Shown: positions 38,785 to 60,386 of the stretch, piece by piece
Position numbering within the stretch: the stretch's first letter is position 1
Layout of the letters: each line of letters opens with the position of its first letter
Source of the DNA: Cristatella mucedo
Lineage: Eukaryota > Bryozoa > Phylactolaemata > Cristatellidae
NCBI GenBank assembly: GCA_009760855.2
Contig: WPIO01000002.1
Span: 60,001-124,000 of the forward strand
Reading direction: 5' to 3'
DNA length: 64,000 nucleotides
Position numbers and translations under genes: made by a program
Notes under the pieces: generated by a model
What the model saw: only the letters and a program-made list of their open reading frames with translations
Database searches by the model: none
Told to the model about the DNA's origin: nothing

Positions 38785-38802
38785 GGATAATAAATGACGT
38801 CA
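38785..38802 (+). promoter_or_regulatory. V1 promoter box with CRE
   Basis: GGATAATAAA directly followed by the palindromic cAMP-response element TGACGTCA (38795-38802), 123 bp before the V1 ATG. The same composite occurs before all five V exons. Confidence 0.75.
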
Positions 38803-38925
38803 CGAGATGTAGTTCATGGCCGCGGTGTGATTTTTTTGCAAACATGTCGATCCCACTTTAGAGGCGCGCGCACGGGGACAAAAGTGACGACCGCTGCGCG
38901 AGATTGGCGCGCCACCTAGCGTGGC

Positions 38926-39301
38926 ATGCCGGTTCCCCAGCTGGCTTCCTGCTCGAAGAAAGAGGTCGCCAAGCAGTCCGTACTCGAGGCGTTCGGCTAC
39001 GTGCTGCAGGAGGCGCTCGGCAGCGGCAGCTTTGCCGTCGTCAAATCGGCCTTCTCGTCGAGGCACAACCGGCGAGTGGCGGTCAAGATCATCAAGAAAA
39101 AGGCGGCGCCCGAAGGCTACATGGAGAAGTTCCTGCCGCGAGAGATAAGCATTCTGCGCGAGCTGCGGCACCCGCACATGGTCTGCTTCCTGCAGTCCAT
39201 CGAGACGACCAACGCCATGTACTTGGTCATGGAGATGGCCGAGAACGGCGATCTCCTCTCCGTCCTAAACCGGGTCAAATGCGTCAAAGAGCAGCAGGCA
39301 G
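38926..39301 (+). CDS. TSSK: TSSK-like kinase, variable first exon V1 (N-lobe)
   Basis: Encodes the ATP-binding N-lobe of a testis-specific serine/threonine kinase: a short 30-residue lead, glycine loop LGSGSFAVVK (residues 31-40), VAVK with catalytic Lys54, helix-C glutamate in FLPREI (Glu73), and hinge YLVMEMAENGDLL with Met102 as gatekeeper. The ATG (GGCATGCCG) is the only in-frame start before the glycine loop. The frame ends at donor G/GTGAGG after 125 codons plus one base (phase 1); reading on past the donor soon meets a stop. No C-lobe exon follows before V2. Joined to 52834 and 60165 it would give a 294-residue kinase, a normal TSSK length. V1 resembles V3 most in the LQSIETTN stretch. 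Third codon positions are strongly GC. Confidence 0.9.
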
Positions 39302-39690
39302 GTGAGGGCGTCGCGCCTCGCCAGCCGCCGCGGCTTGCTTTTCATTGGCGCGCGCGCGCGGCGACAGCGGCGACGGCGAGCGAGCGAGTTTTTCTCCCAA
39401 GCTTCGATCGCATTGAGCTCGACTGACCGGCCGGAGCGCGCTGCTGCGCCAAGAGACAAAGGCCGTCGCTCTCGCCCTTCGCTGCGCGCGCGCGCGTGAG
39501 CGTGAGCGAAATCTTTTCGTCATAATGCGCACGCCAGCGGGCTCAGCTGCAAGTGTCGAACACGCGCCGCGCACGCGACGAATGCGTTCGCGCGACTTAT
39601 CACCGTTTCGAATTGCCACCGGCGCAGCGCGGCGACCGAGAAAGCTCAAGCGATCGTGCCCTTGCTTTATCAAGCGGTCGTCCACTTCTG

Positions 39691-39783
39691 GTTGAAAATC
39701 CTGTTGTTTTAATATAATATATTTAATATTATTATAAGTATACACATACTATAATATAATATTCCAACAACAGGCTTTTCAAC
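39691..39783. repeat. 93-bp inverted repeat (hairpin)
   Basis: GTTGAAAATCCTGTTGTT at the left end pairs with AACAACAGGCTTTTCAAC at the right end, and the AT-rich interior is also partly self-complementary. It resembles a small palindromic MITE; no target duplication was identified. Confidence 0.75.
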
Positions 39784-39790
39784 GAGGCGC

Positions 39791-39936
<146 letters not shown>

Positions 39937-40387
39937 ACTTAGGCCGTCCGATGAAGTTGTAGAGCGGTTGTCACTAGACTACCTTTTCGCCGTGCACTCG
40001 CAGAGCGAGTGCAGTTCAAATACTGCCGCAAGCCCGACATTTTGGTGCTTTCACATATTATTTTATCGCCTATTTCCGCGGGATTTGAACTCCAAACTCG
40101 GATGTCTCGCACTGCTGCCGAAGCCAGACAGTCGCTTGCGAGGCCGGCCGGCGACGCTATCGCGCACTGCGGCTAGCCCTAGCGAGGGCATTGAGAGCTC
40201 AGCTTCCGCTGCTGGCTCCTCCTTGGTCACCGGCACTAGCCCAAGGAAATTGTACAACTAGAATTAGCATTATTACTATTAATTGTGTTAGGAATTGCAG
40301 GATCTCGACGAGCCAAGCGGAAACTAGTCGTAAACTTGGGCTGGGACGTTGGGGTGCTGTCGCACTTTAATTGCACGCCGCCCGAGG

Positions 40388-40507
40388 GTTGGCTCAGGAG
40401 TAACGCGAGCTCGCCTTTGACGATCAGAGTCGTGGGCTCGAGCCGCGAGGCGTAAACGAAGCGCCCGTATAGGGACTAGCTCCTGTTAGGTTGCTGTACA
40501 AATGAAT
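40388..40507 (+). mobile_element. SINE-B copy
   Basis: Head TGGCTCAGGAGTAACGCGAG, B box GGGCTCGAGCC, then AAGCGCCCGTATAGGGACTAGCTCCTGTTAGGTTGCTGTACAAATGAAT. Located in the V1-V2 interval. Confidence 0.7.
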
Positions 40508-40746
40508 CTTGTGTACTCGTTCAACGTCGGTCTTGAGAGTGCATCCGTGACCTAGTGGAAACTCTTACGCGGACGCAGACGGACAACTCTTGCTCTTAGC
40601 AACGGCAAAAAGACACATACTCGACAGCATTGACTTGATTATTGGCTAAGCGCACGGCGTATTGAACGTTCGCTGCTCGAAAAGTTCGGCCGCCTGGTCG
40701 CGACGATCAAAAGCTTCCAGTATCGGCGGGTGGCACACAGAGTATA

Positions 40747-40764
40747 GGATAGTGCGTGACGTCA
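40747..40764 (+). promoter_or_regulatory. V2 promoter box with CRE
   Basis: GGATAGTGCG followed by TGACGTCA (40757-40764), 102 bp before the GTG that occupies the expected start position of V2. Confidence 0.7.
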
Positions 40765-40866
40765 CACGGCGTAGCGCCGCGGGAAGCGGCGGAGCCGAGG
40801 CGGCGGAGGGCGCCCTCCGCTGGAGCGAACCCAAAAAAGCGCAGCCGCTGTTTGTTGCCGGCAGCC

Positions 40867-41350
40867 GTGGCGGCTACGGAAGCGGCTAGGCGCGCCGCCT
40901 CCCCTGCCGGGGCGCCGGCGAGGCACCGCGAAAGCGAGTCTGGCCACGCCCACAAAGATGGCGAGCCGGCGGCCAAGGAGGGCGGTAGCGAGGCTAGGAA
41001 AAGCAGCGCGGGCGATAAAGGGCAGACCATCTTGGAGCAGTACGGCTACCAGATCCACCAGACGCTCGGCAGCGGCTCGTATGCCGTCGTCAAGTCGGCC
41101 TACTACGCGCCGAAGAAGTGCAAGGTCGCCATCAAGATAATACAGAAGAAGAAGGCGCCGGACGACTACATCAAGAAGTTCCTTCCTCGCGAGATCGACG
41201 TCGTCAAGCAGCTCAACCATCCCAGCATGATCTGCTTCATGCAGCTCATCGTCACCGTGAACCGCGTCTACATCGTAATGGAGCTGGCGGAAGGCGGAGA
41301 TTTGCTGGACGTGATGAACAAGACGAAATACGTCAAAGAGCCGCAGGCGG
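40867..41350 (+). CDS. TSSK: TSSK-like kinase, variable first exon V2 (N-lobe), start codon doubtful
   Basis: Kinase N-lobe with glycine loop LGSGSYAVVK, KVAIKIIQKKK (catalytic Lys), FLPREI (helix-C Glu) and hinge YIVMELAEGGDLL, ending at donor G/GTAAGA in phase 1 like the other V exons. The frame opens after a TAG at 40750-40752 and has no ATG before the kinase core. At 40867 a GTG stands in the context gcagccGTGGcg, 102 bp after the CRE, where V1 and V3-V5 have ATG; I use it as the nominal start. An ATG at 40958 is in the wrong frame by one base. Options are GTG or other near-cognate initiation, an unseen upstream exon, an assembly error, or a dead copy. The kinase core itself shows no damage. 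It resembles V5 in the CKVAIKI and KKKAPxDYI stretches. Confidence 0.75.
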
Positions 41351-41460
41351 GTAAGAGGTCGCGGCGGCGGCGGGGCCGGCTGGCTGCCTGGCGCCCCGAC
41401 GAGCAGGGCTCTCCTGGCTCTGCAGACGAGCGCTTCGACGGCGATACGTGCCCATACAGC

Positions 41461-41524
41461 TCAGGGTCTAGGCGACGACCAGGGGTCAGCGGTCAGGGTC
41501 TAGACGACGACCAGGGGTCAGCGG
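41461..41524. repeat. 32-bp tandem duplication
   Basis: TCAGGGTCTAGGCGACGACC... is repeated once at 41493 with one difference, just downstream of the V2 donor. Confidence 0.85.
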
Positions 41525-41602
41525 TCAGCAGGCGATACGAAGCGACACCGGCAGAGCTGCGGCGGAGCGTGCTTGTGGGCAGAGATCAAATGCCCCCTCA
41601 AA

Positions 41603-41752
41603 AAAATCCTAGCTGATTTAACAGCCTCTTTTGTATAGCGATAGACGAGCCTTTACGGTGGGCGATAAAGGATCGCCCACGACAGGATTCGAACCCACGA
41701 CCTCGGGGCTGAGGTCATGCAAAGCAACCGCCTTGCCTAGTGAGCCATTAGA
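41603..41752 (-). mobile_element. SINE-A copy with target-site duplication
   Basis: Flanked by an exact 11-bp direct repeat GCCCCCTCAAA (41592-41602 and 41753-41763), which fixes its ends. On the minus strand: head TGGCTCACTAGGCAAGGCGG (A-box-like), perfect B box GGTTCGAATCC, AAAGGCTCGTCTATCGCTAT and tail GTTAAATCAGCTAGGATTTT. Confidence 0.88.
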
Positions 41753-41763
41753 GCCCCCTCAAA

Positions 41764-41978
41764 GAGCCGGGGGCAGAGACCCGGGCCACCCCTATATTGC
41801 ACACGGCAGATGCTGGGACGGGGGTCAGCCTGTTAGAGACATGTGCATAAGGTTTTTTGTTAAGACAAAAAATATTGCCTATCACGTATCGACTAAGGAC
41901 TAGGATTTCTCGCTAGTTTTCACTACTTGTGGGTTTTGACACCCGCTCAAAAATTCTAGCTCCGCTCCTGCTGCGGAG
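41764..41978. repeat. Possible non-autonomous hAT-type element end
   Basis: The minus strand near 41978-41935 reads CAGGAGCGGAGCTAGAATTT then TTGAGCGGGTGT, resembling the CAGGGGCGGA(T/G)CTAG ends common in hAT-type MITEs. The opposite end is not clear. Confidence 0.3.
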
Positions 41979-42080
41979 TAAGTATTTTAGATAGGCAAGC
42001 CGGAGCAAGAGAACGAAGGGACCTAAAAGTGTGAGCGACGGGTCCTCGAAATCGATGCGTTGCTTACTGAGGAATACTTG

Positions 42081-42262
42081 CTACCGGTGAGCCGCGATGG
42101 CTCACTAGGTAAGGTGGTTGCTTTTCACGACCTCGGCCCCGAGGTCGTGGGTTCGAATCCTGTCATGGGCGATCCTTTATTGCCGCTGCAAACGGTGGTG
42201 ATAGCCGTAAAGGCTCTTCTGTCGCTATACAAAAAGAGGCTGTTAAATCAGCTAGTATTTTT
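42081..42262 (+). mobile_element. SINE-A copy
   Basis: The best-preserved plus-strand copy: head CCGGTGAGCCGCGATGGCTC, A-box-like TGGCTCACTAGGTAAGG, perfect B box GGTTCGAATCC, the CAAACGGTGGTGATAGCCG block, GGCTCTTCTGTCGCTATAC and tail AAATCAGCTAGTATTTTTTTT. Opposite in orientation to 41603-41752. Confidence 0.88.
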
Positions 42263-44245
42263 TTTAACGGTCGGAGTGCGTCGGCCCTAAGCCTGGGCGA
42301 CTAAAGAAAGGTCGTGAACTCCGATGGCGGACCCGCGGAGCGTGCGGGCGGGCGGGGATCCGTATTTCCGCTGCGCTGCCGCTGCCGTGAATTTTCGCTC
42401 GCGCGCCCTCAGGCCGTGTCCACGCGTGGCCCCGCTCAGGCTATTTGAGCGCCCATTGCTACCACCGCGTGGCTCGTCTTCGTGCTCTCGGGTAAGGCCA
42501 CGATGACTTGAGATTCCTGTTGCGGGCCAACGCCTACCCGCGTCGCGCGGTGACGGTCACGTGCACGTGCTCGAGTTTCGCTGCTACGCGCGGCGCTCCG
42601 ACGACACGACGGCGACGACGAGAGGGGGGGGACCGAAGAAGCCGTCCGCCGCTAAATGCTGCTCAGAGTGTATACAATCGCTGGAGCGGCGGCGGGGGGG
42701 GGGTGCGATCCACATCGGGCTTCAGCTGCAGTCTTCTATGGCCATAGATCTCGGGGTGGCGGGGCATTAGGATCATTTACGAGGCGAGCCAATTGAGCCG
42801 TCGGAGGCGAGTAGCTGCCAATCGAGAGAGCGCGCGGCGAGCGTCTTGGCCCGACGCTCGCGTGTGGTGCTAGCATTTGACGGCCCGATCGTGGGCTCGA
42901 TTAGTAGCAGGAGCAGCAGCAGGAGGAAGCTCTTTCCGTTCCGTTGCCTGCTGCAAGCACGGCGAAAGTTGCCAAGGAGTCGCAGCTGACCTCCCTACCG
43001 TCTGCGTGTGAGGGTGCAGCGAGCCCATCGACGACCTTTCTTGTGCAAAAGCGGGCAGAAAATCGAGACGCCTATCGAGAAGCGCCAGCAGCTCCAAGCG
43101 ATAGTCGATAGGTCAAGGCGACCCATGCCGACTTCGACAACCCGGTCGCGGCTGCCGTTGCTGCAGCAGCAGAGGAAATCGGGGGTGTTTGCGCGAGGAA
43201 GCCGGGTATACTTTTCCGCGACGACGCGCAGCGATGGCGCGATCGGCGAAGGGCTGACCTTAACCTTACGTGACTCTCCATACCGTGCGAGCGCACGCGA
43301 TAGCGCTGGATTTCAGTTAAGTAACGACAGCCGAGCCTGAGGCCACGATCCTTACCTCGCGGCCGCCAGGAGGCACTGCTTGCTGACGAGTGGGACGGCC
43401 GTGCGAAAGAGTTTCTCCCTATTTATCTCTCTCGCTACACAGTCAGAGCTATAAGGTTATCTAAGTGAGTTTCTGACACCACTGGTTGGTAACCTCCAGG
43501 GTGAGGGTAGGAAATCGGTTGCAACGAACGAATGTTAATTAGTCGTGAAGCATCAGACTTGTACTTTGACACTTGGCGCCATTCTTCATAATGGGGAGAG
43601 TTAGAAACTTAATTAAGTAAACTCAGATATGAATTTAGAAACAATTTAAAAAAATAGCTACCCGCTAAAATAGGTTCAGACGCCGTCAAATGCTACGAGA
43701 GTCAATCGCAATATGTGTGAAAACCGTGCGAAGCACGCACTTCGTTAGACACCACCGCTGTATGTGCGACAGTGGCAGCGGGGTACGCGTCAGCGGGGTA
43801 CCCGCGAAATAATCGCTGGCGCCGCTGCGATGTCTCAAGAGCATTTTTGTTCCGACAAAAGACTGTCCGAAAAACTCAGCAATATCAGGGTCAAGCGAAG
43901 CACCGCCATTGCCCGACGACAAGACTGAGAGATCATTCTGCGACAGGCGTCCTAGGCAAGGATGACGTCAAAGAAAATGACGCGTGGTAGCGGCGCTCTC
44001 GGAGGGCCGCTTAACATAGTTTTGGTTATAGATTCAAAGCGAGGGAGTGTGAGTTCAGCCACAAGCTATCGGCTCTCGAAATGGCTGATCGAGCTGCGCG
44101 TCGCTTCTGCGACGAGGACGTCGCATCCGGGTCTTGTGATCCAAGCGCGGTTGCATTTTCGAACTTCGGATGGGCAAATTGGGTTCTTACCCGCGCATTA
44201 CTCTCGCTGCTGCGCAGAGAACAGATGCCTATCCTCCTTCCAAAC
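42263..44245. other. V2-V3 interval, no further exon recognised
   Basis: CpG-rich from 42320 to 43340. An ATG in good context at 42324 opens a 60-codon frame (MADPRSVRAGGDP) and a GTAAGG donor-like site lies near 42491, but nothing identifies it as a gene. A second TGACGTCA lies at 43963. Confidence 0.35.
43963..43970 (+). promoter_or_regulatory. Additional CRE upstream of V3
   Basis: Perfect TGACGTCA 285 bp upstream of the V3 composite box, without the GRATAAT-type neighbour. It may be a second CREB/CREM-type site for V3 or chance. Confidence 0.35.
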
Positions 44246-44263
44246 GAATAATAAGTGACGTCA
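44246..44263 (+). promoter_or_regulatory. V3 promoter box with CRE
   Basis: GAATAATAAG followed by TGACGTCA (44256-44263), 75 bp before the V3 ATG. Confidence 0.75.
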
Positions 44264-44338
44264 GCCGGCGGATCCAAACGGAGAGCGGCGACATACCCGT
44301 ACGGATGGGCTGACAGCTAGCGATCGCGGCAGCCATCC

Positions 44339-44756
44339 ATGGCAGCAGGCTCCACGGTCGAAACGCAGCATCGCCTTTCCGCCGATGAACTGCGAAAAGG
44401 CGACGCGAGCGCTCCTGGCGACAAGAAGAAAACCGTGCTCGAGGCTTTCGGGTATCAGGTGCAGCAAACGCTGGGCCACGGCTCTTACGCGTCGGTCAAG
44501 GCGGCCTACTCTAGCACGATGAAGAAAATGGTGGCCGTAAAGATCATCAAAAAGAACCAGGCACCGAAGGACTACCTGGAGAAGTTTCTACCCAGAGAGA
44601 TAAGCCTGATCAAGCTGCTCGACCATCCCAATCTCGTGCTCTTCCTCCAGTCGATCGAGACGACGAACCGGATGTACCTGATCATGGAGGTCGCCGAAGG
44701 CGGCGACCTGCTGGGCGTGATGAACAAGTGCCAGTACGTCAAGGAGCCTCAAGCCG
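44339..44756 (+). CDS. TSSK: TSSK-like kinase, variable first exon V3 (N-lobe)
   Basis: 139 codons plus one base. A polar 44-residue lead (MAAGSTVETQ...) is followed by VLEAFGYQVQQ and glycine loop LGHGSYASVK (45-54), VAVK with Lys68, FLPREI with Glu87, and hinge YLIMEVAEGGDLL (Met gatekeeper). His replaces the usual Ser or Lys between the two loop glycines. Start ATG at 44339 is preceded by CCATCC; donor G/GTGAGA, phase 1. If joined to the shared exons it gives a 308-residue kinase. As with the other V exons, no acceptor is needed at its 5' side: it carries its own ATG and an upstream CRE box. It is closest to V1 (LQSIETTNxMYL, KIIKK). Confidence 0.9.
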
Positions 44757-45842
44757 GTGAGACGGGGGCGGGGCTGGCCGTCGCGAACGCATAACGCTAA
44801 CTGCGCGGGACGCTCTGGCGCGTCTCGCTGCGTCGACGCAGGGACGCCCGTCGGGTCGGATGCCACAGGAGCAGAGCGAACCGGCGGGCTCGGGGTCACG
44901 ATGATGAGACGCGGTTAAAAGCCGGTCAGAAAATGCAGCCAGGAAATTTCCCTCGCCGCCGCCTTCCAGGTCCCTGCGACCCCAGGGCGGTGGCTATATA
45001 ATTGTGAGGCGGCGGAGCCTTCTGGCGGCGGCCTTGGCTCAGGGCACTTAAGCTGCCGCGGGCCTAATGGACTTTTGCGGGCCAGTGCGTACGAATTGCT
45101 CTGCATCGCTGCCGCCGACCGCGCTAGAAACGAAAGGGGGCACGACGCGCGGCCTCATTCGCACTCGAGGACGCATTTCGCAAGGCCTTCTGCATTGATT
45201 TATCGAGTCGGTCCGAGTTTTTTATCACTTGAATATCTAAGCCTCCAGCTTAGCGTCTCCGGGCATGTAAAAAAAATCTGGAATGCTCTCGAGCAGGCAA
45301 AGCCTTTTCGGTGGTACAAAAACAAAACAAATGCTGCGCTCGGCAGACGAGCTGCGGAGGGGTTGCTCGCCGAGCATCCGCTCACCGTGCGTCGTGCATT
45401 GGAATCTTTAGCATGGCCGTCGGAAGCTCGCGCCCTGCGCCGGCGTAGTAACCGATCGTAGTAATCAATCGCACCGCTCTCGCTCTGCGGCAGGAGCTGC
45501 AGGTGACCAATCGCATCGCTCTAAGATCCCAAATTGTGAAACTCGTGGCCAGCACATTGGCGCCGAGGAGGCGTCACCACCCATAACGGATGTGAGGGCC
45601 GTTCTTCATTAAAAAAAAACCCGACGATTCCATTTTAACAGAAAATTGAATATCAAAGTCTTGCTTCTTCGCACGCCCTTCTCTTTAGCGTTATCCGAGG
45701 CAAGAAACGCGGGCTGACTGCGGTCGGATGACAATTTGTCAATTAAAGAAGAAAGTCTTGAGGTTAAGCCCACAGTGGCTTTTGGAAATAGATATTCCTA
45801 GCTAAATGATCCACCAATTAAGGTATTTTTCTCTTCTGTGAT

Positions 45843-45887
<45 letters not shown>

Positions 45888-46609
45888 CTCTCTGTATGTT
45901 TTTCCTGCTCTCTATCTTGCTCTCTCGTTTCGCCCTGCTGACTTACCTCATAAACTAGAGCAAGAGCGAGATGACGCGAAGCGAGGGTCTCATTGCATTG
46001 GCTGAACAGTAAGCAGGAAGCGTCGCGCCTCCTGCCCCGCGTAGGGAAGCGAATAGGCCGAGCCCCGGTCGGAATTGAGGTAAGCACCATTTCAGTGCCA
46101 AGCCAGCGCCCCCGTATACATTATCTCACCATAAGGCGGCCGGTAATCTCATCGCGTGATAGAGAGGAAGGAGGCGCGGCGACTAGTCGCTCGAGCTCGA
46201 TTGTGCGACATCGAGGCTTGGGTACTGACCAAGCTGCGCAGGCTCGCGATTAGTCCAGACTAGCATCTTAACCCGACGGCTGTATTTCATGTGGACGGCT
46301 GAATTCTTAGGGACTGGCCAATTATGCACTCAAAATGACAAAATTTACAAGTGAGATCAGTCGGACGATAGCAGCCGGCAGGCAAAATTCCCATGACCTT
46401 GACCCAAGATTCAAATGATCATAGTTGCCAACTTCTGTCGGCTGACTTAACGAAGAATCAGAGAAGGCCGCCTCAGACAGAGACCAATACCATGGACCAA
46501 TTCTTCAGAACCACGTGGCGTCGATGTTGGTCGCTGCCGAGACAGTTCACTCTTGTGTGCAAACCAGTGACCAGATTAGAAAGACTCCTTCGCACTATTG
46601 AGTCGTTAT
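44757..46609. other. V3-V4 interval, no gene recognised
   Basis: Contains a TC microsatellite (45846-45896). A 128-codon frame at 45075-45461 lacks motifs and an ATG start. No extra kinase N-lobe or C-lobe sequence was seen. Confidence 0.4.
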
Positions 46610-46845: not shown

Positions 46846-47049
46846 GGGCTCACGCCGCACCCTCTCGGACGAGGGACGTTCGGGCGCGTGAGCGGTCCAG
46901 TCTGGGGCCTCGGTTCCTCAGCTGCGTCGGCCGTCTACCAGAGCGGCGCGCGGCCCGATCGCCGCCGCCGCAGCCGCCGCAGCATCGCGCCGCTCCCGAC
47001 GCCGGCGCCCGTGCGGCAGTACACTCACCCAAACAATTCGCTTCGTCGG

Positions 47050-47067
47050 GAATAATTCGTGACGTCA
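47050..47067 (+). promoter_or_regulatory. V4 promoter box with CRE
   Basis: GAATAATTCG followed by TGACGTCA (47060-47067), 74 bp before the V4 ATG. A related AAACAATTCG block lies just upstream. Confidence 0.75.
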
Positions 47068-47141: not shown

Positions 47142-47598
47142 ATGGCGGACGATGGTCACGACGTGGATGGCGGCGGCGGCGGCCGGACCGACGCAGCGCC
47201 AGCGGAGAAAGACGCAGGCGGCGGCGCGAAGGGCGCCTTCGCCGTGGAGCCGCCGAGCGGCGCCGAGGCGAAGCCGGTGCTGGAGAGATTCGGCTACGTC
47301 GTCAAGCAGACGCTCGGCTCGGGATCGTACGCCGTCGTCAAGCTGGCGCTCGACACCAGCACGGACGAAATGGTGGCCGTGAAGATTATACAGAAAAAGA
47401 AGGCGCCCTCGTCGTACATCAAGAAGTTCTTGCCTCGCGAGCTGGCCATCATCCGAATGCTCAAGCATCCCAACATGGTGTGCTTCCGGAAGTCGATCGA
47501 GACTGAGAACCGCATGTACCTCGTAATGGAGCTGGCCAGCGGCGGCGACCTGCTCAACTTGGTCAACAAGGAAAAGTACGTCCAGGAGCGCCAAGCCG
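47142..47598 (+). CDS. TSSK: TSSK-like kinase, variable first exon V4 (N-lobe)
   Basis: 152 codons plus one base, the longest V exon because of a 45-residue Gly/Ala/Asp-rich lead. Then VLERFGYVVKQ, glycine loop LGSGSYAVVK (58-67), VAVK with Lys81, FLPREL with Glu100, and hinge YLVMELASGGDLL. The start is ATG at 47142 (tcgATGGcgg). Donor G/GTGAGG, phase 1. Joined to the shared exons it gives about 321 residues. The linker before the splice is KYVQERQA, equivalent to KYVKEPQA in V2 and V3. The antisense frame of similar length is a shadow. Confidence 0.9.
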
Positions 47599-50323: not shown

Positions 50324-50341
50324 AAACAATTCGTGACGTCA
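50324..50341 (+). promoter_or_regulatory. V5 promoter box with CRE
   Basis: AAACAATTCG followed by TGACGTCA (50334-50341), 87 bp before the V5 ATG. Confidence 0.75.
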
Positions 50342-50428: not shown

Positions 50429-50861
50429 ATGGCGCCCAAAGGGGCGGCGGTTAAGGACGGACCGCAGGACGGGAGTCAGACCGGAAGCCAGACGAACGTA
50501 GCGGCGGCGAGCAAGCGGGAAGAGCACGCGCCGCAGAACATTCTCGAGTCGTACGGCTACGAGGCGAAGCACACGCTCGCCAGCGGCTCCTACGCGGTAG
50601 TCAAGGAGGGCTACTCGGCGTCCAAGCAGTGCAAGGTCGCCATCAAGATTGTGCAAAAGAAGAAGGCGCCGAAGGACTATATCGACAAGTTCCTGCCGCG
50701 CGAGATCAAGATAATCAAGGACCTGCACCATCCGCACATGGTGTGCTTTAAGGAGCTCATAGAGACGAGCAACCGCGTGTACATCATCATGGAGCTGGCC
50801 GAGCGCGGAGACCTCCTGGACGTGATGAATCGCCGCAAGTACGTCGACGAAGCCCAGTCCG
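50429..50861 (+). CDS. TSSK: TSSK-like kinase, variable first exon V5 (N-lobe)
   Basis: 144 codons plus one base. The lead is 40-odd polar residues (MAPKGAAVKDGPQ...), then LESYGYEAKHT and an altered glycine loop LASGSYAVVK (50-59) in which Ala51 replaces the first glycine. KVAIKIVQKKK has catalytic Lys73, FLPREI has Glu92, and the hinge is YIIMELAERGDLL. Start ATG at 50429 (cgcaATGGcg); an upstream TTG in frame is not needed. Donor G/GTAAGG, phase 1, 1,972 bp before the first shared exon, the nearest of the five. Predicted spliced product 313 residues. Closest to V2. The glycine change could weaken ATP binding, but the catalytic Lys and Glu are present. Confidence 0.9.
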
Positions 50862-51112: not shown

Positions 51113-51637
51113 CTATCACTCACTCTCACTCACCCTCACTCACTCACACGCTCACACAGGCTTTCTTGCCACGACCTGATCTCGAGCGGGCTGCACTAGG
51201 CAAACACTCGGCCCTGCCGTGCGGTTGCACTTGGCAAAGGCGTTTCCGGAAGCCACGCTCGCATTTCGCAATAAAGCGGAGAAACCCGTACCGTCGTTCT
51301 CTCCGTCTGCGGTTGCCACCTGTAAACTGCCACAATTATTCTTACTTGTTGTACTGCTGGTGTTGCGGGTCGGTGCCGCAGCGCCGGCACTAACGTCGGT
51401 GCTCACAGTGAAAAGCGTATACGATCTGGGTGTCGGTCCAAATGTGCGACTGGTATGACCCCAACCCTTGCGCTCGGGGTTCAAAGGCCGTAAGTTTATG
51501 TAACTTTATGATGGTGGAATGCAGTGCCGTTGTTTCAAGCGCCGCGGCATACCTAGGGATTGCCTGACGCTACTGTCAATGCCGCTCCGCGTTCTCTCAC
51601 TTCCATTTGGTATCTAGGTAGAAGTAAAGCCATTGCA

Positions 51638-51704
<67 letters not shown>

Positions 51705-51803: not shown

Positions 51804-51806
<3 letters not shown>

Positions 51807-52833
51807 ATGTGCAAGCCTTCTTACCCTCCGGTTCAAGTTGGACTGACTTTGCGAATGCTCTCTAGCAATATATAACGTGCCTCACGATGTACTTGTCAAT
51901 ACACTTTGCTGGAATGGAGACTCATTGAAGCTCGAACCTAAGATGCCCTCATCACGTGGAGCAAAGATCGTCTACTGGCTGATGTTTCGGCTGCAGCCGC
52001 GCGAGCCCCTTCTGTGCGCTATAATGCGATCTCAAGGCGGGAAGCGGGGTGGGGGAAGTATCGCTATGGTGGCTTAAGCTGACCATTTTGTCTTACGGCA
52101 AATAATCAGCAAGGAAAGGTGGCACGAAGCGTAACGACGATAAGGGCATCGAGCAGAACTTTTTCAGATACACTGCACTGTGGTGGCAATCGAGCAAGTG
52201 GTACGACGGAGTCTACTCTTCATGTAAACCAAGTGCTGCGGCAGACATGTGTTTTGTGCATTCTTTTCCTTCAGCCGAATCATAAGAGTTTCGATACTGA
52301 TAAGGCCACTACACAATTAAAAGTCCTTTCATAAACGTGGAGTTAAGCTCAGCACAAAAAAGGCGACCCAGTCGTTCCACGCCAAATGCAAACGGGTTCA
52401 ACTACTAGCGTTCACTCTACTTTAAAAACCGTCATCGTTGCTATTGAGTCCGCCCGTTTCGAGTGGTCACGTGTGCCCTTCGCGAGCTCCTCTGTCCTGA
52501 GCAAGCATTGATGAGCTACTCACAGTGAGAACATTTAAAAAAAATGCAAGGCATGTGAGCCTCGGTTGCTCCAGACTCGTGCGACTCGTGCAGAAAAGAG
52601 CGAGGCTCAAATCCTAGTAACGAGCCCACGCTTTGCTAACGCCGCCCGCGGCACGTCCGACGCCGGCACGTACAACTGCAAAGCGTAATCCAGTGTTCGC
52701 ACCAAGCTGGTAAATTCTCAATGGCGACCAACAGCAGGGCTAAGGTTTGGAGGACCTAGACTCCTTAGATATTCAGGTCCAGGTGCTCGGCGCCAGAAGT
52801 GAGCGGCTGCAAATGATGCGGCGACATTTGTAG
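51804..52833. other. 3' part of the V5-C1 intron
   Basis: Nothing recognised. The acceptor GACATTTGTAG ends at 52833. Confidence 0.5.
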
Positions 52834-53120
52834 GCATTTGGTACGGTCAGATGGTAGACTGCATCGCCTACATCCACAGTAAGGGCATCGTGCATCGCGA
52901 TCTGAAGTGTGAGAACGTTCTGCTGGACAGCAAAAACAACATCAAAGTTACCGACTTTGGCTTCGCGCGAAGCGGTCTCATCAAGCCAGACGGGACCATC
53001 TCCTACAGCCAGACGTACTGCGGCAGCTACTCGTACGCGGCCCCGGAAATCCTCACTGGCACTCCGTACAATCCATTCAAGAGCGACATATGGAGCTTGG
53101 GCGTCATTCTGTTCATTATG
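52834..53120 (+). CDS. TSSK: TSSK-like kinase, shared exon C1 (catalytic and activation loops)
   Basis: Starts after acceptor CATTTGTAG. Its first two bases complete the Gly codon begun by any V exon; 95 codons follow and it ends at ATG/GTACGA in phase 0. It encodes helix E ([13 protein letters not shown]), the catalytic loop [12 protein letters not shown] (HRD Asp22 of the exon), DFG (40-42, in VTDFGFAR), a TSSK-type activation segment with a Thr in [13 protein letters not shown] (69-71) and [21 protein letters not shown] and the xT(Y/F)CGSxxYAAPE signature point to the TSSK family. This is the only copy of these motifs in the window. Without splicing at 53120 the frame reads on into a 21-bp repeat and stops at 53309. 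Confidence 0.92.
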
Positions 53121-53153
53121 GTACGACTGCAGCAGCTGCAGCAGCGGCGGCCC

Positions 53154-53306
53154 GCGGCGGCGCGTATAGCAGCAGCGGCGGCGCGTATAGCAGCAGCGGT
53201 GGCGCGTATAGCAGCAGCGGTGGCGCGTATAGCAGCAGCGGCGGCGAGTATAGCAGCAGCGGACGCCCGCGGCGGCGCGTATAGCAGCAGCGACGGCGGC
53301 GGCGCG
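53154..53306. repeat. 21-bp GC-rich tandem repeat
   Basis: About six imperfect units of GGCGGCGCGTATAGCAGCAG(C), five in direct tandem and one after a short break. They begin 34 bp after the C1 splice donor. The unit is a multiple of three, so the C1 frame stays open (Ala-Arg-Ile-Ala repeats) until TAG. Confidence 0.9.
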
Positions 53307-54136
53307 TAGCGCTCGCCTTTTGAAGCCTTTGAGGCTGCGATCGCTTCGCTGCAGTCGCTGCGCAGCGATCGAAGCGATCCCTGCGCAGCCGCCATTTCGC
53401 AACGTCAGCTCTTGCTTCCATCTGAAGCTTCGGCTTTTCGATGCTGGATGTATGACTTCGGAGAGGCAACGCGCAGCAACTTCAGCGTTCGAGCCCGAGA
53501 GCTTACGAAATCGCCTCATCCTCCAGAGCGCTTAGCCGCTGCTGGCGATCGTAGCTGTCATGGCGGCCAGAGCGGACGACCTTTGCCTTCGGCATTTCTC
53601 AGCCGTCGAGGCGTGGCTGAGCTCTGAGCACGTGCGACGCTCGGGCGGCACTGTTTGCTATCTGCGTCAGCGGACGTGTCTGCCTCGGGGTCACTAGATC
53701 TCGGATAGTTAGGCCCGAGCTTGGATTGCTTCTGCTCCTAGCGCTCGGCCGAGAGCGTTCGTGTGACACGCATGCGCCAAGGCGCTACCTCCGAAAAGCC
53801 CCGACCGCCAAGCTGTTAGTACACCAGAGAGATTCGCACGAGATGCCATAACCCTTCGCTCCCAATCTTCCTTTGAGGTCACAAAGCGGTATTGGCGCTA
53901 GTAATGTTCACAGTAAAAATATCCGCTCCTCGCGTGCTAAAACGTCCAAGACAGAAATGGCGTAGACTCGTCGTACTGCGACCGAAGGTGAAATAGGAGC
54001 CTGTCTGAGTAATTAGCGCTATAGAAGCACTGCGTATTGCTATGAAGGCGCTGTGCAGCTGCTTAACTTATCCTTTGCAAGAAACACGTCGGCCGTTACG
54101 GATGTTGGTCACTGCAGACTAGTAACTAATAATGCA
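53307..54136. other. Intron sequence
   Basis: A hairpin-capable pair GATCGCTTCG (53339-53348) / CGAAGCGATC (53370-53379) lies here; otherwise nothing recognised. Confidence 0.5.
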
Positions 54137-54626
54137 GTCGTCCCTCGACGCTTCTCGCTACGACTTTTGCGGCTCCACTCTCTCGCGGTTTTTTCAATTC
54201 TATCCATTAAAAAGTTGGAGATAGTTAAAAGGATACAGCTCGCGTTCGGTTATCTGAGTCAACTATGCACCCCTGTCTGTATTACAATTAAAATTAAAAC
54301 GACTGTACGTATGGACTGTGTATTCGAGCACCCCGAAAACCCTTCAATGCCATTGCAGCAGCGCGACCGCTCCTTGTGCGTTGGCAAGAATTTTTTAATT
54401 TTGTCTTAATATATTGTGTAATAGGTAATGGTGACTGAAGGGTTGTTATTTCATGTCCAGAGGGCTCTAATAATGTTAAAAGCCGTATTTAAAGAGCCGT
54501 GAACATATTTTTTATGCTCTAACTACAAAAATATTCAATTCATAAATAAAGGATCCTACTTCGCAGAAATTTAGTTATCGTGGCAATCTAGAACTGATTG
54601 ACCGCGATAACGAGGGACGACTGTAC
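54137..54626. mobile_element. Non-autonomous TIR DNA transposon (pogo/Tigger-like ends)
   Basis: Perfect 13-bp terminal inverted repeats CAGTCGTCCCTCG (starting about 54138) and CGAGGGACGACTG (ending about 54625) enclose about 490 bp without coding capacity. Internal TTATCG / CGCGATAACG blocks extend the repeat. The right flank is TA; the left flank is TG, possibly a decayed TA duplication. A related fragment is at 35174. Confidence 0.75.
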
Positions 54627-54829
54627 TGAGAGAGATAGCCCCCTCAACCATTGCTAATGATTATTAAATGCAGCACACCTGTCTGCAGGAATGCTGACGG
54701 TAGCAGAGCATGGCAGCTGCTGAGAACGTCGATACCTCAGTCGGAAGCTCTTGTGGTCAACGTCGAGAAGTCTATCCAAATCCATCGAGGCTACCCTTCA
54801 CCTGCCGAGCCATAAAGCATGCTACTACG

Positions 54830-54960
54830 AATTTAATGAGCGTGCTACCACTAACCATCCAATCATGCTTCCTTTGCAGCAAATGTAAAGCGTCTAGAAA
54901 GTGATTGAGTTCACTGAGGGTGCTTTATCAAGTGTGTTATAAATTATTATTATTATCATT
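54830..54960 (+). mobile_element. LINE 3' tail
   Basis: GAGCGTGCTACCACTAACCAT, CCTTTGCAGCAAATGTAAAG, CGTCTAGAAAGTGATTGAGTT, GAGGGTGCTTTATCAAGTG and ATTATTATT. Confidence 0.8.
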
Positions 54961-55377
54961 ATAAAGCACTACTTCTGTTCGACTCAAATCCTAAACTACA
55001 ACTCAGTTCGAAATTGCAACTCGGAGCCTGAAGTACAACCGATAGACCATAATGTATCTCCGTCTGTAACTCCACAAAGTCATAAAGACCATGTGGGTGT
55101 TACGCAGGAGAGTTTTGTATAGCGCACTCACAGCCTAAGCGGCTTTCGGTACGCATTCGGTAGCCAACAGACTTCGTCTCACGCAACAAAGAGAAAGTGG
55201 GAGGCATAGCAGAGTCAGGAGAGCAGTTTAGGTAGTGAGTAGCATAGAAGTAGCAGCTTAGGACCGCTGAAAAAGATGTGCCATAGTCGGCAGTAGTAGA
55301 CCATCATGACAGATGTCGAGTTACTTTACAAAACTTTTGCTTATGCCATGCCTGGTTCCTAAAGCTTATAATTCAGG

Positions 55378-56130
55378 AATAATAATAATAATAATAATAT
55401 TGCACTTGATAAAGCGCCCTCAGAGAACTTAATCTCTTTCTAGGCGCTTTACATTTGCTTCAAAGTGATATGCAATAGAATAGTAAGTAAAATCATGCTT
55501 GAAAAAACAAACAAAATGAATAATATGGTTAGGGGTGACATGCACAGGGTCAGCATGCAAATGTGGTTAGTGGCAGCATGCACAGTGTCAGCACGCATAA
55601 GCACATCAAGGACGAATCACAGGGACCCACTAAATGCTGTCCTAAATAGGTGTGTTTTTAAGTTTCTTTTAAATGTGGTCAGGTCATGGGATGTTCTGAC
55701 GCAGGTCGGGAGGGAGTTCCAGGCTTTGGGAGCATACGAGCTAAATGCACGGTCTCCAAAGGATTGAAGGTTTGTACGAGGTATTTCCAGACTGTTGGAT
55801 TCCGAGAAGCGGGTGGTACGATGCTTGGCCTGATGGGGTAGTATATCTGAAAGATAGGCTGGAGTCATAGAATGAAGAGACCTAAAAGTGAGCGACAAAA
55901 CCTTGAAGTCAATCCGTTGCCTCACTGGTAGCCAGTGCAGGTCGGCGAGAAGTGGAGTAATGTGGCAACTGCGACGCTTACGACAGACAAGCCTAGCTGC
56001 AGAGTTTTGCACCAGCTGCAATCGCCTGATCGCACATGCTGGTAGGCCAGTAAGCAGTGAGTTGCAGAAGTCAAGACGGGATTTCACGAATGCATGGACC
56101 AACTTGGACGTTGGTATCCCTACCTAAACA
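55378..56130 (-). mobile_element. LINE fragment with RT C-terminus, well preserved
   Basis: On the minus strand a 161-codon open frame (56102-55617) covers the C-terminal reverse-transcriptase region: [67 protein letters not shown] and LKTHLF. The 3' UTR and a (TTA)n end at 55378 follow. These motifs are typical of L2/CR1-group LINEs. 5'-truncated; no endonuclease. Confidence 0.88.
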
Positions 56131-56930
56131 AGCCCTAACAAGGAACCACTCATAATCTTAACACTTTCATAACCTAGCAGATTTTTCATATCAGCTTTTT
56201 ACCGCTTTCTCCTTTCTCCTTCTCCCTGTGCTGAGCTCTTCCAATAAATTTGATGATGGCACCGGTTGTGTATAGGATGATTTTATATCCATTAAAATGC
56301 TTACAAACAGATTCTATCAGCTTTTTGCCGCTTTCTCCTTACATTACACACACATTACATAATAAAGAAATCTAGCACAAACGCCAATGGTAGGTGTCTA
56401 CTTTCTTCGCTTCTGCCACCTCGGAAAGCTCTTTAACATTAATTGCTACCGAGGATTTTCGGACGCCGTGCCCCCTTTGCTGCTATCTTCGCTGTGGCGT
56501 ATCGTCTCTTGCCCTTCGGTTAAAGTGCACGCCTTTGAGAGGTCGTGGGATTGAGCGGCCTATGCGAAGCGCCTGGATGGAGATTCAGTTCTCTCTGGGT
56601 ACCATGCAGCATAAGTTGTATTTATATTATATTTTCCCCGCCGACAGCCGTCGCCATCGAGCCGATCTTTAACTCATCTTTAGGGGCCCATGTCTTTCCC
56701 TGAAGGCCGTTCAGGCTACCAGCACTTCACTTGGCTGGAGACAGACAGGCGAGCATATTTGGCCTTAGCCCTATATCATTAGATACCTACGACGATCTCA
56801 TAGCCTAGAGAACGATCGGTGCACGCGGCACATAATCAGGACGAGCGGCGCGTCAGCGCTTCACTGCGCCCAGGCGTATGCTAGAGGATGAGAATGCTCC
56901 CGCACAGATAGTGATGGAGAGTGAGGAGAA

Positions 56931-57126
56931 ACGCACCTGCTTACTACAGCGTTTGATGGGTCTCTGCGATTCGTCCTTCGTGTGCATGCACCTGCTGACT
57001 ACGCCTGCTGCTTGCGCACGTTACCGCAAAACATTTGGTCATGCTTTATATGCAGCATTTATAAAGCGCCTGGGGAGAGATTTAGTTCTCTGAGGGCGCT
57101 ATGCAAATATCATAACTACTATTATT
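56931..57126 (+). mobile_element. LINE 3' tail within a short tandem repeat
   Basis: From GCTTACTACAGCGTTTGATG through GCGATTCGTCCTTCGTGTGC to AAAGCGCCTGGGGAGAGATT, TTCTCTGAGGGCGCTATGC and TATTATT. Flanked by copies of an approximately 38-bp unit (CCGCACAGATAGTGATG-like) at 56891-56930 and 57127-57163, with a further partial unit after that. Confidence 0.75.
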
Positions 57127-57784
57127 AATGCTGCCGCATGGATAGTGATAGGGAATGAGGAGAATGCTTCCACATAGATAGTGATAAATGTGAGCCACGG
57201 TGAGCTCACCGAGCCGGCCGGGGGGGGGGAGGGAGGGCGGCCGCTGACCGAGAGCCATAGAAGAACCTACCTGTAGGCCGGCGACGGGGAGGAAAGGCGT
57301 AATGCCAGCAGTCGCTGCTGCTGCTGCCGAGCCTATTACCGCCCGCAAGTAGGCGGACCCGCTCACGGACTCGCTGCGCCGGCCGCAGCGACTTCCTCGA
57401 GCGCCGCACAAGCGGATCCTCGCGGGATTCTCGTCGCGGAATGCTAGGTTTACAACTTGGCCGAAGACTGACCATGCCGCTGGACTTGGAGCGAAAGCAC
57501 GCATACGCAAAACGCAAAAGCGGTACGCAAAACCAATCGACCTCGAGGTCTTTGGTCAATTGACCCCGAGGTCCGGGTCAGAGGGGTCGAGCGGCTCGTC
57601 GTCTATCGAGACTCGGTTGTCCATCTCTCGATGCATAGCATACAGGCTCGGATGCCTCTAACAGCCACTGAGTGAAGCGTCCGTCGAGCGGAATCGCCGT
57701 CGCTCGCAGTCGTAATGCATTTGCTCATTTCCCGACTGTATCTGGGAGCCTTGCTGCAACGACTGGGTTCGCTCGCACTGCGGA

Positions 57785-59260
57785 GATAATAATAATAAAA
57801 ATAATAATAATAATGCACTTGATAACGCGCCCTCAGAGAAGTCAATCTCTTTCTAGGCGCTTTACCTTTGCTGCAAAGGGAAACACAATTGAATGGTGAG
57901 TGATATTATGGTTGATAAACAACATGAATAACATGGTTAGGGGTGACATGCACAGGCTCAAAATGCAAATGTGGTTAGTGGCAGCATGCACAGTGTCAGC
58001 TCGCATAAGCACATGAAGGACGAATCACAGGGACCCACTAAATGCTGTCCTAAATATGTGTTTTTAATTTCTTTTTTAATGTGGTCAGGTCAGGGGATGT
58101 TCTGACGCAGGTCGGGAGGGAGTTCCAGGCTTTGGGAGCATACGAACTAAATGCACGGTCTCCAAAGGATTTGAGGTTTGTACGAGGTATTGGTAAACTG
58201 TTGGATTCCGAAAAGTGGGTGGTGCGATGCTTGGCCTGGTGGGGGAGTAGATCTGAAAGATAGGCTGGAGCCAAAGAATGAAGTGACCTAAAAGTTAGCA
58301 ACACAACCTTGCAGTCGATCCGTTGCTTGATTGGTAGCCAGTGCAGGTCAGCGAGAATTGGTGTGAGCAAATGTAAAGAGCCTAGAAAGAGATTGAGTTC
58401 TCTGAGGGCGCTTTATCAAGTGCATTATTATTATATTATTATTACAATGTGGCAACTACGACGCTCACGACAGACAAGCCTAGCTGCAGAGTTTTGCACC
58501 AGCTGTAATCGCCTGATTGCACATGCCGGTAGGCCAGCAAGCAGTGAGTTACAGAAGTCAAGATGGGATGTCACAAATGCATGGACCAACTTAGACGTGG
58601 TATCCTTATCTAAACAAGCCCAAATTTTAGCAATGCTATGTAGCTGAAAGTAGGCAGACTTGATTGTGGAGCTGATGTGGTCGTCCAACGTGAGGTCACT
58701 TAGGAACATGACACCTAGATTTCGAGCTGATTCCACAGGAGATATGCTGGCAGAGCCAATTTTGAGCATCCGCCTTTCCAATTTCTGAATCACACTGGGT
58801 TTGCCCATAACTAGTAAGTTGGTTTTATCATAGTTTAGTTTTAGAAAATTTGCTGCCATTCATGTCCGGATGTCATCAATACATGCAGCAAGTGAGTTGA
58901 GAGAATTTGAGGTGCTCGAAGGCTGTGAGGAATCAAAGCAAAGGTACAACTGAGTGTCATCCGCATAGAAGTGAAAGCCTAGATTGTGCTTGGCAATCGC
59001 ATCAGCAAGAGGGAGAGTGTAAACCGGAAACCGTGAAAAGAACCGGACTTAGCACGGAGCCTTGAGATACCCCATATTTCAGAGGTACCTCGGATGATCT
59101 TTGTCCGTTCGCGTCAATACTCTGGAGTCTCTCACTGAGATAGGACCTGAACCTTTGCAGAGCAGTGCCAGTGATGCTCAGGCGAGATGAGGGGCGCTCA
59201 AAAGAACTTTGTGATCGATAGTATCAAAAGCTGCCGAAATGACGACGAGATCAGCAAGAG
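57785..59260 (-). mobile_element. Longest LINE copy, with RT palm motifs
   Basis: Minus-strand order: SAAFDTIDHKVLL, LQSIDANGQRSSEVPLKYGVSQGSVLSP, FHFYADDTQLYLCF (the YADD catalytic motif), KLNYDKTNLLVMG, a SISPVESARNLGV region, [20 protein letters not shown], then [29 protein letters not shown], the 3' UTR and (TTA)n at 57785. Frameshifts and stops break it, and a plus-strand LINE tail is inserted at 58365-58445. The motifs indicate an L2/CR1-group non-LTR element. No endonuclease domain was seen, so it is 5'-truncated. Confidence 0.9.
58365..58445 (+). mobile_element. LINE tail nested in the opposite-strand LINE
   Basis: GAGCAAATGTAAAGAGCCTAG, AAAGAGATTGAGTTCTCTGAG, GGCGCTTTATCAAGTGC and ATTATTATATT interrupt the RT frame of the surrounding copy between the LADLHWLP and RRSCHI codons. 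Confidence 0.85.
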
Positions 59261-60164
59261 ACCGCATCCGTAGCTCGTATCGAATCGAATTGGCTGACCC
59301 AGTGCTGCTGGCCATGGCTCCGCACGCCCGGTCCGCTGCTGCCGCCGCTGCCTGGGTGGATGCGCAAAGTATCGTTGTAATTATTGTTACTATGATTTTA
59401 ATTGGTCAGGACGCGACCGGATACCGTCGGACTGGGCGGTCTAGATCGTGGATCTAGCGAGAGATCCGAAGTGGCGTAGAATCCTGCTGGCGTCCGCTCT
59501 GCTGGCCCACTTAGCCGGAGGGCGCCCCAGCAGGACCGCGGGGCACCGTCGCCGGACTAAGCGCCAGACGAGCGGCAGGCGGCGAGAGCTGACCGCAGGT
59601 AGACCGCGGCGGTGTGCATACAAACTGGATGCCCTCTGCCCTCCGCCCTCCGCCGCCCCCGATTGGCAGCTGCTCAGCAATGGGCTGGCGAGCTGCTCGT
59701 CGGTGCTGCCGCCAGCGCCAGCTGCCAGTTTCGGCGCCCTCAGTGGGCTAAGAAGAGATCGAGCTATTTTTAAAGCTAGCCGCCGGATATGTGCAGAATT
59801 TTGAAGCGAGGGAGACGCAGCGGCGCTAAGCGAATCTCTGCCGCCACCGCGTACGCCCGCCGCTAGAGCAGACGCGGCATTAAGGGGTATGCCCCCCCCC
59901 CCGCAGTGGGAGTTATCCTCTCAAAATGTCTGCCAGTAGTGGGAGTTATCTCCCAAAGGACATTTTTAAGCGAAGCGTTGCTCGTCCCGAGCGAGAGAGC
60001 TCGTCGAATAAATTCAATTAAACGCAAGCGCCCCATCAGGAGCGCGCGAGTGGTTTCAAAGCCGCGACGGTTGCCATGACGAGCCGCCGCCGCCGACGGC
60101 AGCGCGAGTACGACGAGGCGGCCACGAACGTCTCGCTTCACCTCCGTACGCACTGCATTTGTAG
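59261..60164. other. Intron sequence before C2
   Basis: A GTG-started frame (59448-59804) with a hydrophobic start and RRTKRQ is not supported as a gene. Otherwise nothing recognised. Confidence 0.4.
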
Positions 60165-60386
60165 GTTTTCGGCAGATTTCCGTTCGACGACACAACGCAC
60201 AAGACGCTGCTAAAGCAAGTTCAGAGCGAGGTCAAATTTCCTTCCGATCGCACCTGGGTTTCAGACGAATGCAAGAGTCTCCTGAAGAAGATCTTCCAGC
60301 GCCCAGACAATCGAATGACGTTCGAGGAGATGCGCAAGGACCCGTGGTACCGGAAGCTGTGCAGCGGCGCGCAAAAGAAGGAGTAG
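60165..60386 (+). CDS. TSSK: TSSK-like kinase, shared terminal exon C2
   Basis: Starts after acceptor GCATTTGTAG in phase 0, matching the C1 donor, so LGVILFIM continues into VFGRFPFDDTTHKTLLKQ. It encodes the rest of the C-lobe: the TSSK hallmark PFDDT, VKFPSDRTWVSDECKSLLKK (helix G to H), IFQRPDNRMTFEEM (the conserved Arg before the last helices) and DPWYRKL, then a short tail ending in KKE and TAG (60384-60386); 73 residues. Short tails are usual for TSSK3/6-type members. No close AATAAA follows; the first one I see is at 61216. Confidence 0.92.
   Translation, partial: VFGRFPFDDTTHKTLLKQVQSEVKFPSDRTWVSDECKSLLKKIFQRPDNRMTFEEMRKDPWYRKLCSGAQKKE

What the first reader, a model, noticed from the sequence alone, without database searches (positions are those of the whole stretch)
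38785..60386. Kinase locus with five alternative first exons, each encoding a full N-lobe, sharing one C-lobe
V1 (38926-39301), V2 (to 41350), V3 (44339-44756), V4 (47142-47598) and V5 (50429-50861) each encode a complete, different kinase N-lobe. Each stops at a consensus donor in phase 1 at the same alignment position, just after the hinge and helix D (KYVKEPQAG-type end). Only one HRD-DFG-APE exon (52834-53120) and one terminal exon (60165-60386) exist downstream, and every V exon joins them in frame. Protocadherin and UGT1 clusters work this way; from memory I know of no kinase locus described with swappable N-lobes. The result would be five TSSK isoforms with different ATP-binding and regulatory faces but one activation loop and substrate lobe.
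Basis: partly seen in the sequence, partly recalled or inferred. Interest (0 to 1): 0.95.

Follow-up and report, generated by a model that had tools for sequence, protein, structure and literature searches.

The report
Kinase gene with five interchangeable N-lobes
An invertebrate genome, probably a bryozoan's, has five different first exons in a row, each coding the upper half of a sperm-type protein kinase and each with its own promoter-like element, but only one copy found of the lower half, so one gene seems able to make five chimeric kinases by choosing its start site.

Summary
Five + strand exons (V1-V5) each encode a different TSSK4-like kinase N-lobe and end at a GTRAG donor in phase 1 at the same alignment column. 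One C1 and one C2 exon follow; all five V-C1-C2 joins stay in frame. A search of the 572-Mb assembly (128 of 289 candidates scored) found no second C1 or C2 and no sixth V. New evidence: each V start lies 82-131 bp below a perfect CRE (TGACGTCA). That site occurs 6 times in the 12.2-kb cluster and 0 times in 130.7 kb of other sequence. The CRE and about 10 bp upstream are conserved between units; the remaining flank is near the misaligned control. V1 has an 82-86% identical counterpart elsewhere (P0128). The five cores have no stop and no gap. Best reading: a UGT1-like variable-first-exon cluster in which promoter choice selects the N-lobe. Limits: no RNA evidence; V2 has no in-frame ATG (a GTG sits where one is expected); no counterparts of V2, V4 or V5 found elsewhere; species not identified. 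I rate it a new variant of a known kind.

The parts
38795..38802 (.). Palindromic CRE TGACGTCA, 131 bp above V1 start
38926..39301 (+). V1 exon: ATG, N-lobe, hinge and helix D, donor GTGAGG after phase 1
40757..40764 (.). CRE TGACGTCA, 110 bp above the V2 GTG
40867..41350 (+). V2 exon: no in-frame ATG before 41227; read here from the GTG at 40867 (frame open from 40753); donor GTAAGA
43963..43970 (.). Extra CRE TGACGTCA, 376 bp above V3 start
44256..44263 (.). CRE TGACGTCA, 83 bp above V3 start
44339..44756 (+). V3 exon: ATG, N-lobe; closest of the five to the bryozoan type found elsewhere (73-75%); donor GTGAGA
47060..47067 (.). CRE TGACGTCA, 82 bp above V4 start
47142..47598 (+). V4 exon: ATG, N-lobe; donor GTGAGG
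50334..50341 (.). CRE TGACGTCA, 95 bp above V5 start
50429..50861 (+). V5 exon: ATG, N-lobe; glycine-rich loop begins LASGS where the others have LGxGS; donor GTAAGG
52834..53120 (+). C1, only copy found: helix E, HRD, DFG, activation loop, APE, start of helix F; acceptor CATTTGTAG, donor GTACGA, ends in phase 0
60165..60386 (+). C2, only copy found: end of C-lobe and stop TAG; acceptor CATTTGTAG
61216..61221 (+). AATAAA, the only one in the 1.6 kb after C2; candidate poly(A) signal

Best explanation
This is one TSSK4-like kinase gene organised as a variable-first-exon cluster. Each V exon is a first exon with its own CRE-containing promoter (inferred). A transcript starting at any V uses that exon's phase-1 donor, skips the downstream V exons, and splices to the single C1 and then C2 (inferred from phase and from the lack of any other partner found). 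The result is up to five full-length kinases. They differ in the whole N-lobe, hinge, helix D and N-terminal tail, and share catalytic loop, activation loop and substrate lobe. In mammals TSSK4 phosphorylates CREB and CREM, and several TSSK genes fall in CREM-null testis. The shared CREs therefore suggest co-ordinated spermatogenic expression, possibly self-reinforcing (hypothesis). The array probably arose by tandem duplication of promoter plus exon 1, once an intron lay between the two lobes; among the sequences read here, an exon break at exactly that place was seen in the bryozoan-type ones only.
For: Anatomy and frame. One C1/C2 and five V in the assembly: (128 of 289 candidates scored); none in the two 10-kb flanks. 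CREs at 82-131 bp in 5 of 5 units; 6 in the 12.2-kb cluster against 0 in 78.9 kb from 15 other loci of this genome and 0 in the other 51.8 kb of the window (the remaining 12 of 27 loci overlap these or the window). A CRE appears in 27-70 of 20,000 shuffles of each 200-bp upstream stretch. Anchored on the CRE, 15 of 18 columns from -10 to +7 have at least 4 of 5 identical, against 14 of 112 other columns; a misaligned control gives 8.7 of 130. Constraint: 109 codons without gap or stop in all five; differences at codon positions 1/2/3 of 26-38/12-25/38-50% in the 10 pairs. If unconstrained, the chance of no stop is 0.02-0.11 per exon. V1 and P0128 group at 100/100; V1-V5 with Bugula and P0121-P0128 are split at 100/99 from 15 other TSSK4-like sequences. 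P0121-P0128 leave the family right after QAG, 8 of 8; Bugula P0003 continues there into a C1 counterpart 76% identical. CREB/CREM link: passages of PMC10454534 and PMC7401350.
Against: No RNA evidence at all. V2 lacks an in-frame ATG. Counterparts of V2, V4 and V5 were not found in other species in the listed best 120 hits of two profile searches, so they may be lineage-specific. My acceptor filter could not show that V exons lack acceptors, because it also missed the real C1 and C2 acceptors. An AATAAA at 51270 lies between V5 and C1. First-position differences are high (26-38%) and third positions are GC-biased (0.83-0.89), so the codon-position contrast is modest. The simulation is crude (substitutions only). 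CREs are not testis-exclusive (general knowledge), and of five Tssk genes listed as reduced in CREM-null testis only two (Tssk2, Tssk6) are listed as bound by CREM. The genome-wide frequency of the extended CRE motif could not be measured.
Confidence: 0.8

Rival explanations
1. Only one or two V exons (V5 as the nearest, or V3 as the one most like other bryozoans) are used; the others are relics of exon duplication.
For: No transcripts seen; V2 has no ATG; no V2, V4 or V5 counterparts found elsewhere.
Against: All five cores are intact at 54-70% pairwise identity; no-stop chance 0.02-0.11 each if unconstrained; donors and CREs kept in 5 of 5; V1 has a counterpart elsewhere.
Confidence: 0.12
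2. V exons are mutually exclusive internal cassettes behind a common 5' exon rather than promoter-driven first exons.
For: V2 lacks an ATG, so it could be fed from upstream; V4 and V2 frames are open well upstream (46776 and 40753). Absence of acceptors could not be shown.
Against: V1, V3 and V5 have in-frame stops 6, 18 and 33 bases above their ATG; each unit carries its own CRE.
Confidence: 0.07
3. V exons (or some of them) also make stand-alone N-lobe proteins through read-through and intronic polyadenylation, acting as decoys.
For: Open frames run past several donors; an AATAAA at 51270 and an ATTAAA at 52316 lie between V5 and C1, and two ATTAAA between V3 and V4.
Against: No AATAAA in the four stretches from a V donor to the next V (9.4 kb, but only 1.0 expected by composition); consensus donors kept in 5 of 5.
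Confidence: 0.05
4. Assembly artefact: complete tandem genes collapsed so that C1/C2 copies were lost between the V exons.
For: Tandem duplicates are prone to misassembly; raw reads were not available.
Against: 15.8-Mb contig, no N in the window, flanks of the units not alike beyond the CRE, and no stray C1/C2 found in the assembly.
Confidence: 0.03

Closest known systems
UGT1 (UGT1A) cluster of vertebrates
   Same: Tandem variable first exons of like length and phase, each with its own promoter and a conserved motif at about the same upstream position, one set of constant exons; the variable part is half of a two-domain enzyme (PMC1885805 passages).
   Different: Different enzyme; there the variable half binds the acceptor substrate, here it is the nucleotide-binding N-lobe and the substrate lobe is constant. 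Here the seam lies inside a protein kinase domain.
Clustered protocadherins; GCNT2; chelicerate sDscam 5' cassettes
   Same: Variable 5' exons with own promoters joined to constant exons (passages; abstract and outline).
   Different: Adhesion proteins or a glycosyltransferase; not kinases.
Mutually exclusive catalytic-domain exons in MAPK14, MAPK9, MAPK10
   Same: Alternative versions of part of a kinase domain from one gene (PMC1431701 passages).
   Different: Internal segments chosen by splicing, not a whole N-lobe chosen by promoter (segment size and C-lobe place from memory). Aplysia PKA-C alternative exons are similar, from memory only.
TSSK4 of other animals
   Same: Most named close hits are called TSSK4-like or TSSK3-like; the second intron position (...MV) looks shared.
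   Different: In 12 unnamed genomic ORFs that I read (P0036, P0086, P0129-P0132, P0237, P0239, P0241, P0244-P0246) the N-lobe runs into the C-lobe without a break at QAG; the five of these used in the tree fall outside the bryozoan clade.

Membership tests
UGT1-type variable-first-exon cluster | Tandem, same-strand, homologous variable 5' exons | tested here: met
   V1-V5
UGT1-type variable-first-exon cluster | One set of downstream constant exons, all joins in frame | tested here: met
UGT1-type variable-first-exon cluster | Own promoter for each variable exon | tested here: inconclusive
   CRE at 82-131 bp in 5 of 5; no start-site data
UGT1-type variable-first-exon cluster | Variable exons lack a 3' splice site | tested here: inconclusive
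   crude filter found none but also missed the real C1 and C2 acceptors
UGT1-type variable-first-exon cluster | Transcripts joining each variable exon to the constant exons | not testable with these tools
   no RNA data for this genome
TSSK family kinase | Closest relatives by sequence are TSSKs | tested here: met
   named close hits mostly TSSK4-like or TSSK3-like; best solved structure TSSK6, 8iyj
TSSK family kinase | Active kinase motifs (Gly loop, VAxK, alphaC Glu, HRD, DFG, APE) | tested here: met
   V5 has LASGS in the Gly loop
TSSK family kinase | Testis expression | not testable with these tools
   inferred from family and CRE only

The most novel reading that the evidence does not exclude
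All five N-lobes are made, each from its own CRE promoter in the male germ line. The kinase's own phosphorylation of CREB/CREM feeds back on the cluster. The N-lobe swap gives one substrate lobe five different partner-binding and activation faces: combinatorial variation inside a kinase domain by promoter choice.
Probability: 0.35. Interest if true: 0.88.

Novelty: new variant of a known kind. Interest (0 to 1): 0.74.

Why it matters
Protein kinases are usually diversified by whole-gene duplication or short alternative segments (general knowledge). A cluster that exchanges the entire N-lobe while keeping one catalytic and substrate lobe would be a natural lobe-swap experiment. It would separate what the N-lobe contributes (activation, partner binding) from what the C-lobe contributes (substrate choice). 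It would also extend the UGT1/protocadherin gene design to a signalling enzyme and link it to a CRE-driven germ-line programme.

Tried and rejected
Hidden C1/C2 copies: none in the window or among the scored candidates of the assembly. More V exons in the 10-kb stretches either side of the window: none. Other TSSK-like loci as donors of a C-lobe: L024 (C683) and L025 (C507) carry their own N-lobe exons, and no CRE was seen there, though 1400 bases of L024 read N. Acceptor scan above V exons: uninformative, since it also missed C1 and C2. Counterparts of V2/V4/V5 elsewhere: not seen in the listed best 120 of 393 and of 550 hits. Two N-lobe ORFs on contigs listed with the same length (P0239, P0244) looked like another cluster, but each continues into its own C-lobe. 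Is the break at QAG special? My pattern found 268 of 272 proteins with FLPRE, of which 203 run on to HRD. By my reading of the other 65, 25 also pass the seam, 8 (P0121-P0128) break at QAG, 29 break earlier inside the N-lobe (about FLQ), and 3 break or diverge otherwise, two of them (P0151, P0250) just before the seam. Many of the 203 are spliced annotations and say nothing about introns. Genome-wide count of the extended CRE pattern: not completed. Literature: searches showed no kinase with alternative N-lobe first exons (listings of an open-access library; one search returned 0 papers). In the tree 3 of 19 chosen reference sequences were dropped because my trimming pattern missed them, and 15 of its 26 inner branches are unresolved; one reference was dropped the same way.
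Full report
Where it lies. The window is G000:C222:60001-124000 in a 572-Mb assembly of 688 contigs. The contig is 15.8 Mb long and the window has no N. The closest relative of the constant exon C1 among 272 fetched proteins is a Bugula neritina protein (P0003, 75.8%; the next eight listed are 61-68%). The N-lobes form a clade with it (100/99). I therefore take the organism to be a bryozoan or a near relative; the species is unknown.

The observation. Five exons encode complete TSSK-type N-lobes: V1 38926-39301, V2 to 41350, V3 44339-44756, V4 47142-47598, V5 50429-50861. Each ends at a GTRAG donor after phase 1. C1 (52834-53120) and C2 (60165-60386) follow. All five V-C1-C2 joins are in frame. 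In alignment with TSSK6 the seam falls before the helix that precedes HRD, that is, between helices D and E (helix names from general kinase knowledge). V1-V5 match Pfam PF00069 positions 1 to 98-100 and C1 matches 104-190. C2 gave no Pfam hit on its own but aligns with TSSK C-termini.

Is the C-lobe really single? tblastn on the window shows one C1 and one C2; their other hits have E above 1. In the assembly (128 of 289 candidates scored) V1-V5 are the only N-lobes above 50% identity, and C1 and C2 occur once. The next C-lobe pieces by identity (59% and 58%) belong to loci C507 and C683, which have their own N-lobe exons. The 10-kb stretches on either side of the window hold no V-like exon.

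Promoter evidence. TGACGTCA occurs six times in the window, against 0.75 expected, and 0 of 100 shuffles reach six. Five of the six lie 131, 110, 83, 82 and 95 bp above the V1-V5 starts (V2 measured to its GTG). The sixth is at 43963, above V3. None occurs in the other 51.8 kb of the window or in 78.9 kb from 15 other loci of this genome (the remaining 12 of 27 loci overlap these or the window). Shuffling each 200-bp upstream stretch gives a CRE in 27-70 of 20,000 trials. Anchored on the CRE, 15 of 18 columns from -10 to +7 have at least 4 of 5 identical (by eye RRAYARTDMR-TGACGTCA). Other columns reach that in 14 of 112; misaligned controls give 8.7 of 130. Mean identity outside the CRE is 2.66 of 5 against 2.5 in the controls (range 2.32-2.82). 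This is a footprint inside otherwise diverged sequence. I could not count the extended motif genome-wide (search did not complete).

Constraint on the exons. The 109-codon cores of all five align with no gap and no stop. Differences at codon positions 1/2/3 are 26-38/12-25/38-50% across the 10 pairs; third positions are 83-89% G or C, which hides changes there. A substitution-only simulation gives a 0.02-0.11 chance of no stop per exon at 20-50% divergence. V1 has a counterpart in a metagenome protein, P0128: 82% over 127 residues, 86% over the core, with a similar start, MPV...SKKEV, tree support 100/100. V2 and V5 are sisters (96/88). Seven other clusters (P0121-P0127) and Bugula P0003 form one very conserved type, 73-75% identical to V3; its place relative to V3 is not resolved in the tree. 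Counterparts of V2, V4 and V5 were not seen, so part of the array may be lineage-specific.

Where the seam came from. P0121-P0128 depart from the family directly after QAG, 8 of 8, and Bugula P0003 continues from QAG into a C1 counterpart. By contrast, 12 genomic ORFs of unnamed organisms (P0036, P0086, P0129-P0132, P0237, P0239, P0241, P0244-P0246) run through QAG and break later, at the C1-C2 position (...MV). Others break elsewhere: P0240, P0242 and P0243 after the HRD stretch, 29 earlier inside the N-lobe, and P0151 and P0250 just before the seam. A break at exactly the lobe seam was seen in bryozoan-type sequences only. This is an inference from ORFs, not from DNA.

V2. It has no in-frame ATG from 40753 to its core. 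A GTG at 40867, in the context GCAGCC-GTG-GCG and 110 bp below the CRE, marks the expected place. V2 may start at a non-ATG codon, receive an upstream exon, or be disabled in this individual.

Mechanism. The best-supported model is promoter choice plus splicing of the cap-proximal V donor to C1, as in UGT1, where each variable exon has its own promoter with a conserved motif at about the same position (PMC1885805, passages). Shown: anatomy, phase, no other partner found, CRE footprint, constraint. Inferred: transcription from each V, skipping of downstream V exons, germ-line expression. No AATAAA lies in the four stretches from a V donor to the next V, but only 1.0 is expected; one lies between V5 and C1 (51270) and one 830 bp after the C2 stop (61216). 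The CRE link is attractive because a review states that TSSK4 phosphorylates CREB Ser133 and, in vitro, CREM Ser117, with in-vivo proof still wanted. Its table lists Tssk1, 2, 3, 5 and 6 as reduced in CREM-null testis, Tssk2 and Tssk6 as bound by CREM and the other three as not (PMC10454534, passages; CREB also in PMC7401350, passages). A feed-forward loop is a hypothesis.

Comparison with the known. The gene design is known: UGT1, GCNT2, protocadherins (passages) and chelicerate sDscam (abstract). Alternative exons inside kinase domains are known for MAPK14, MAPK9 and MAPK10 (passages). I found no report of a kinase with a set of alternative N-lobe first exons in searches, which cover open-access papers only and of which I saw listings. 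I rate it a new variant of a known kind.

Weak points. No RNA. The second species is represented by one short metagenome protein. The acceptor scan was uninformative. The organism is inferred.

Noticed in passing
window 63321-64000 (+): Open frame MWSLSGRLYRIDQVPLVFRETGITEGYRHPQ..., HlyIII family (PF03006, E 1.1e-26), like a PAQR membrane progestin receptor (from memory), running off the window end about 3 kb below C2.
   Followed up: partly
window 55617-56123, 58050-58859 (-), also 14072-14425 and 24458-24796 (+): Repeated fragments of a LINE-like reverse transcriptase tail ([28 protein letters not shown] type, recognised from memory; no Pfam hit); the first two stretches lie in the C1-C2 intron.
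   Followed up: partly
window 40867: V2 has GTG where the other four V exons have ATG; possible non-ATG start in an animal gene.
   Followed up: partly
window 53154-53304: GC-rich 21-bp and 31-bp tandem repeats from 34 bases after the C1 donor; the C1 frame stays open through them to 53309, so intron retention would add an Ala/Arg-rich tail.
   Followed up: no
window 43963: A sixth perfect CRE, 293 bp above the V3 CRE, with no exon of its own found.
   Followed up: no
window 39802-39927, 51639-51702: Long pure TA repeats between V1 and V2 and between V5 and C1.
   Followed up: no
L024 (G000:C683:354000-363900): Another TSSK-like gene with the N-lobe split over at least two exons; 1400 bases read N.
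   Followed up: partly
P0183-P0271 (29 of the 65 proteins): Many N-lobe ORFs from unnamed contigs break at about FLQ, which suggests a second, widespread intron place inside the N-lobe of TSSK4-like genes.
   Followed up: no
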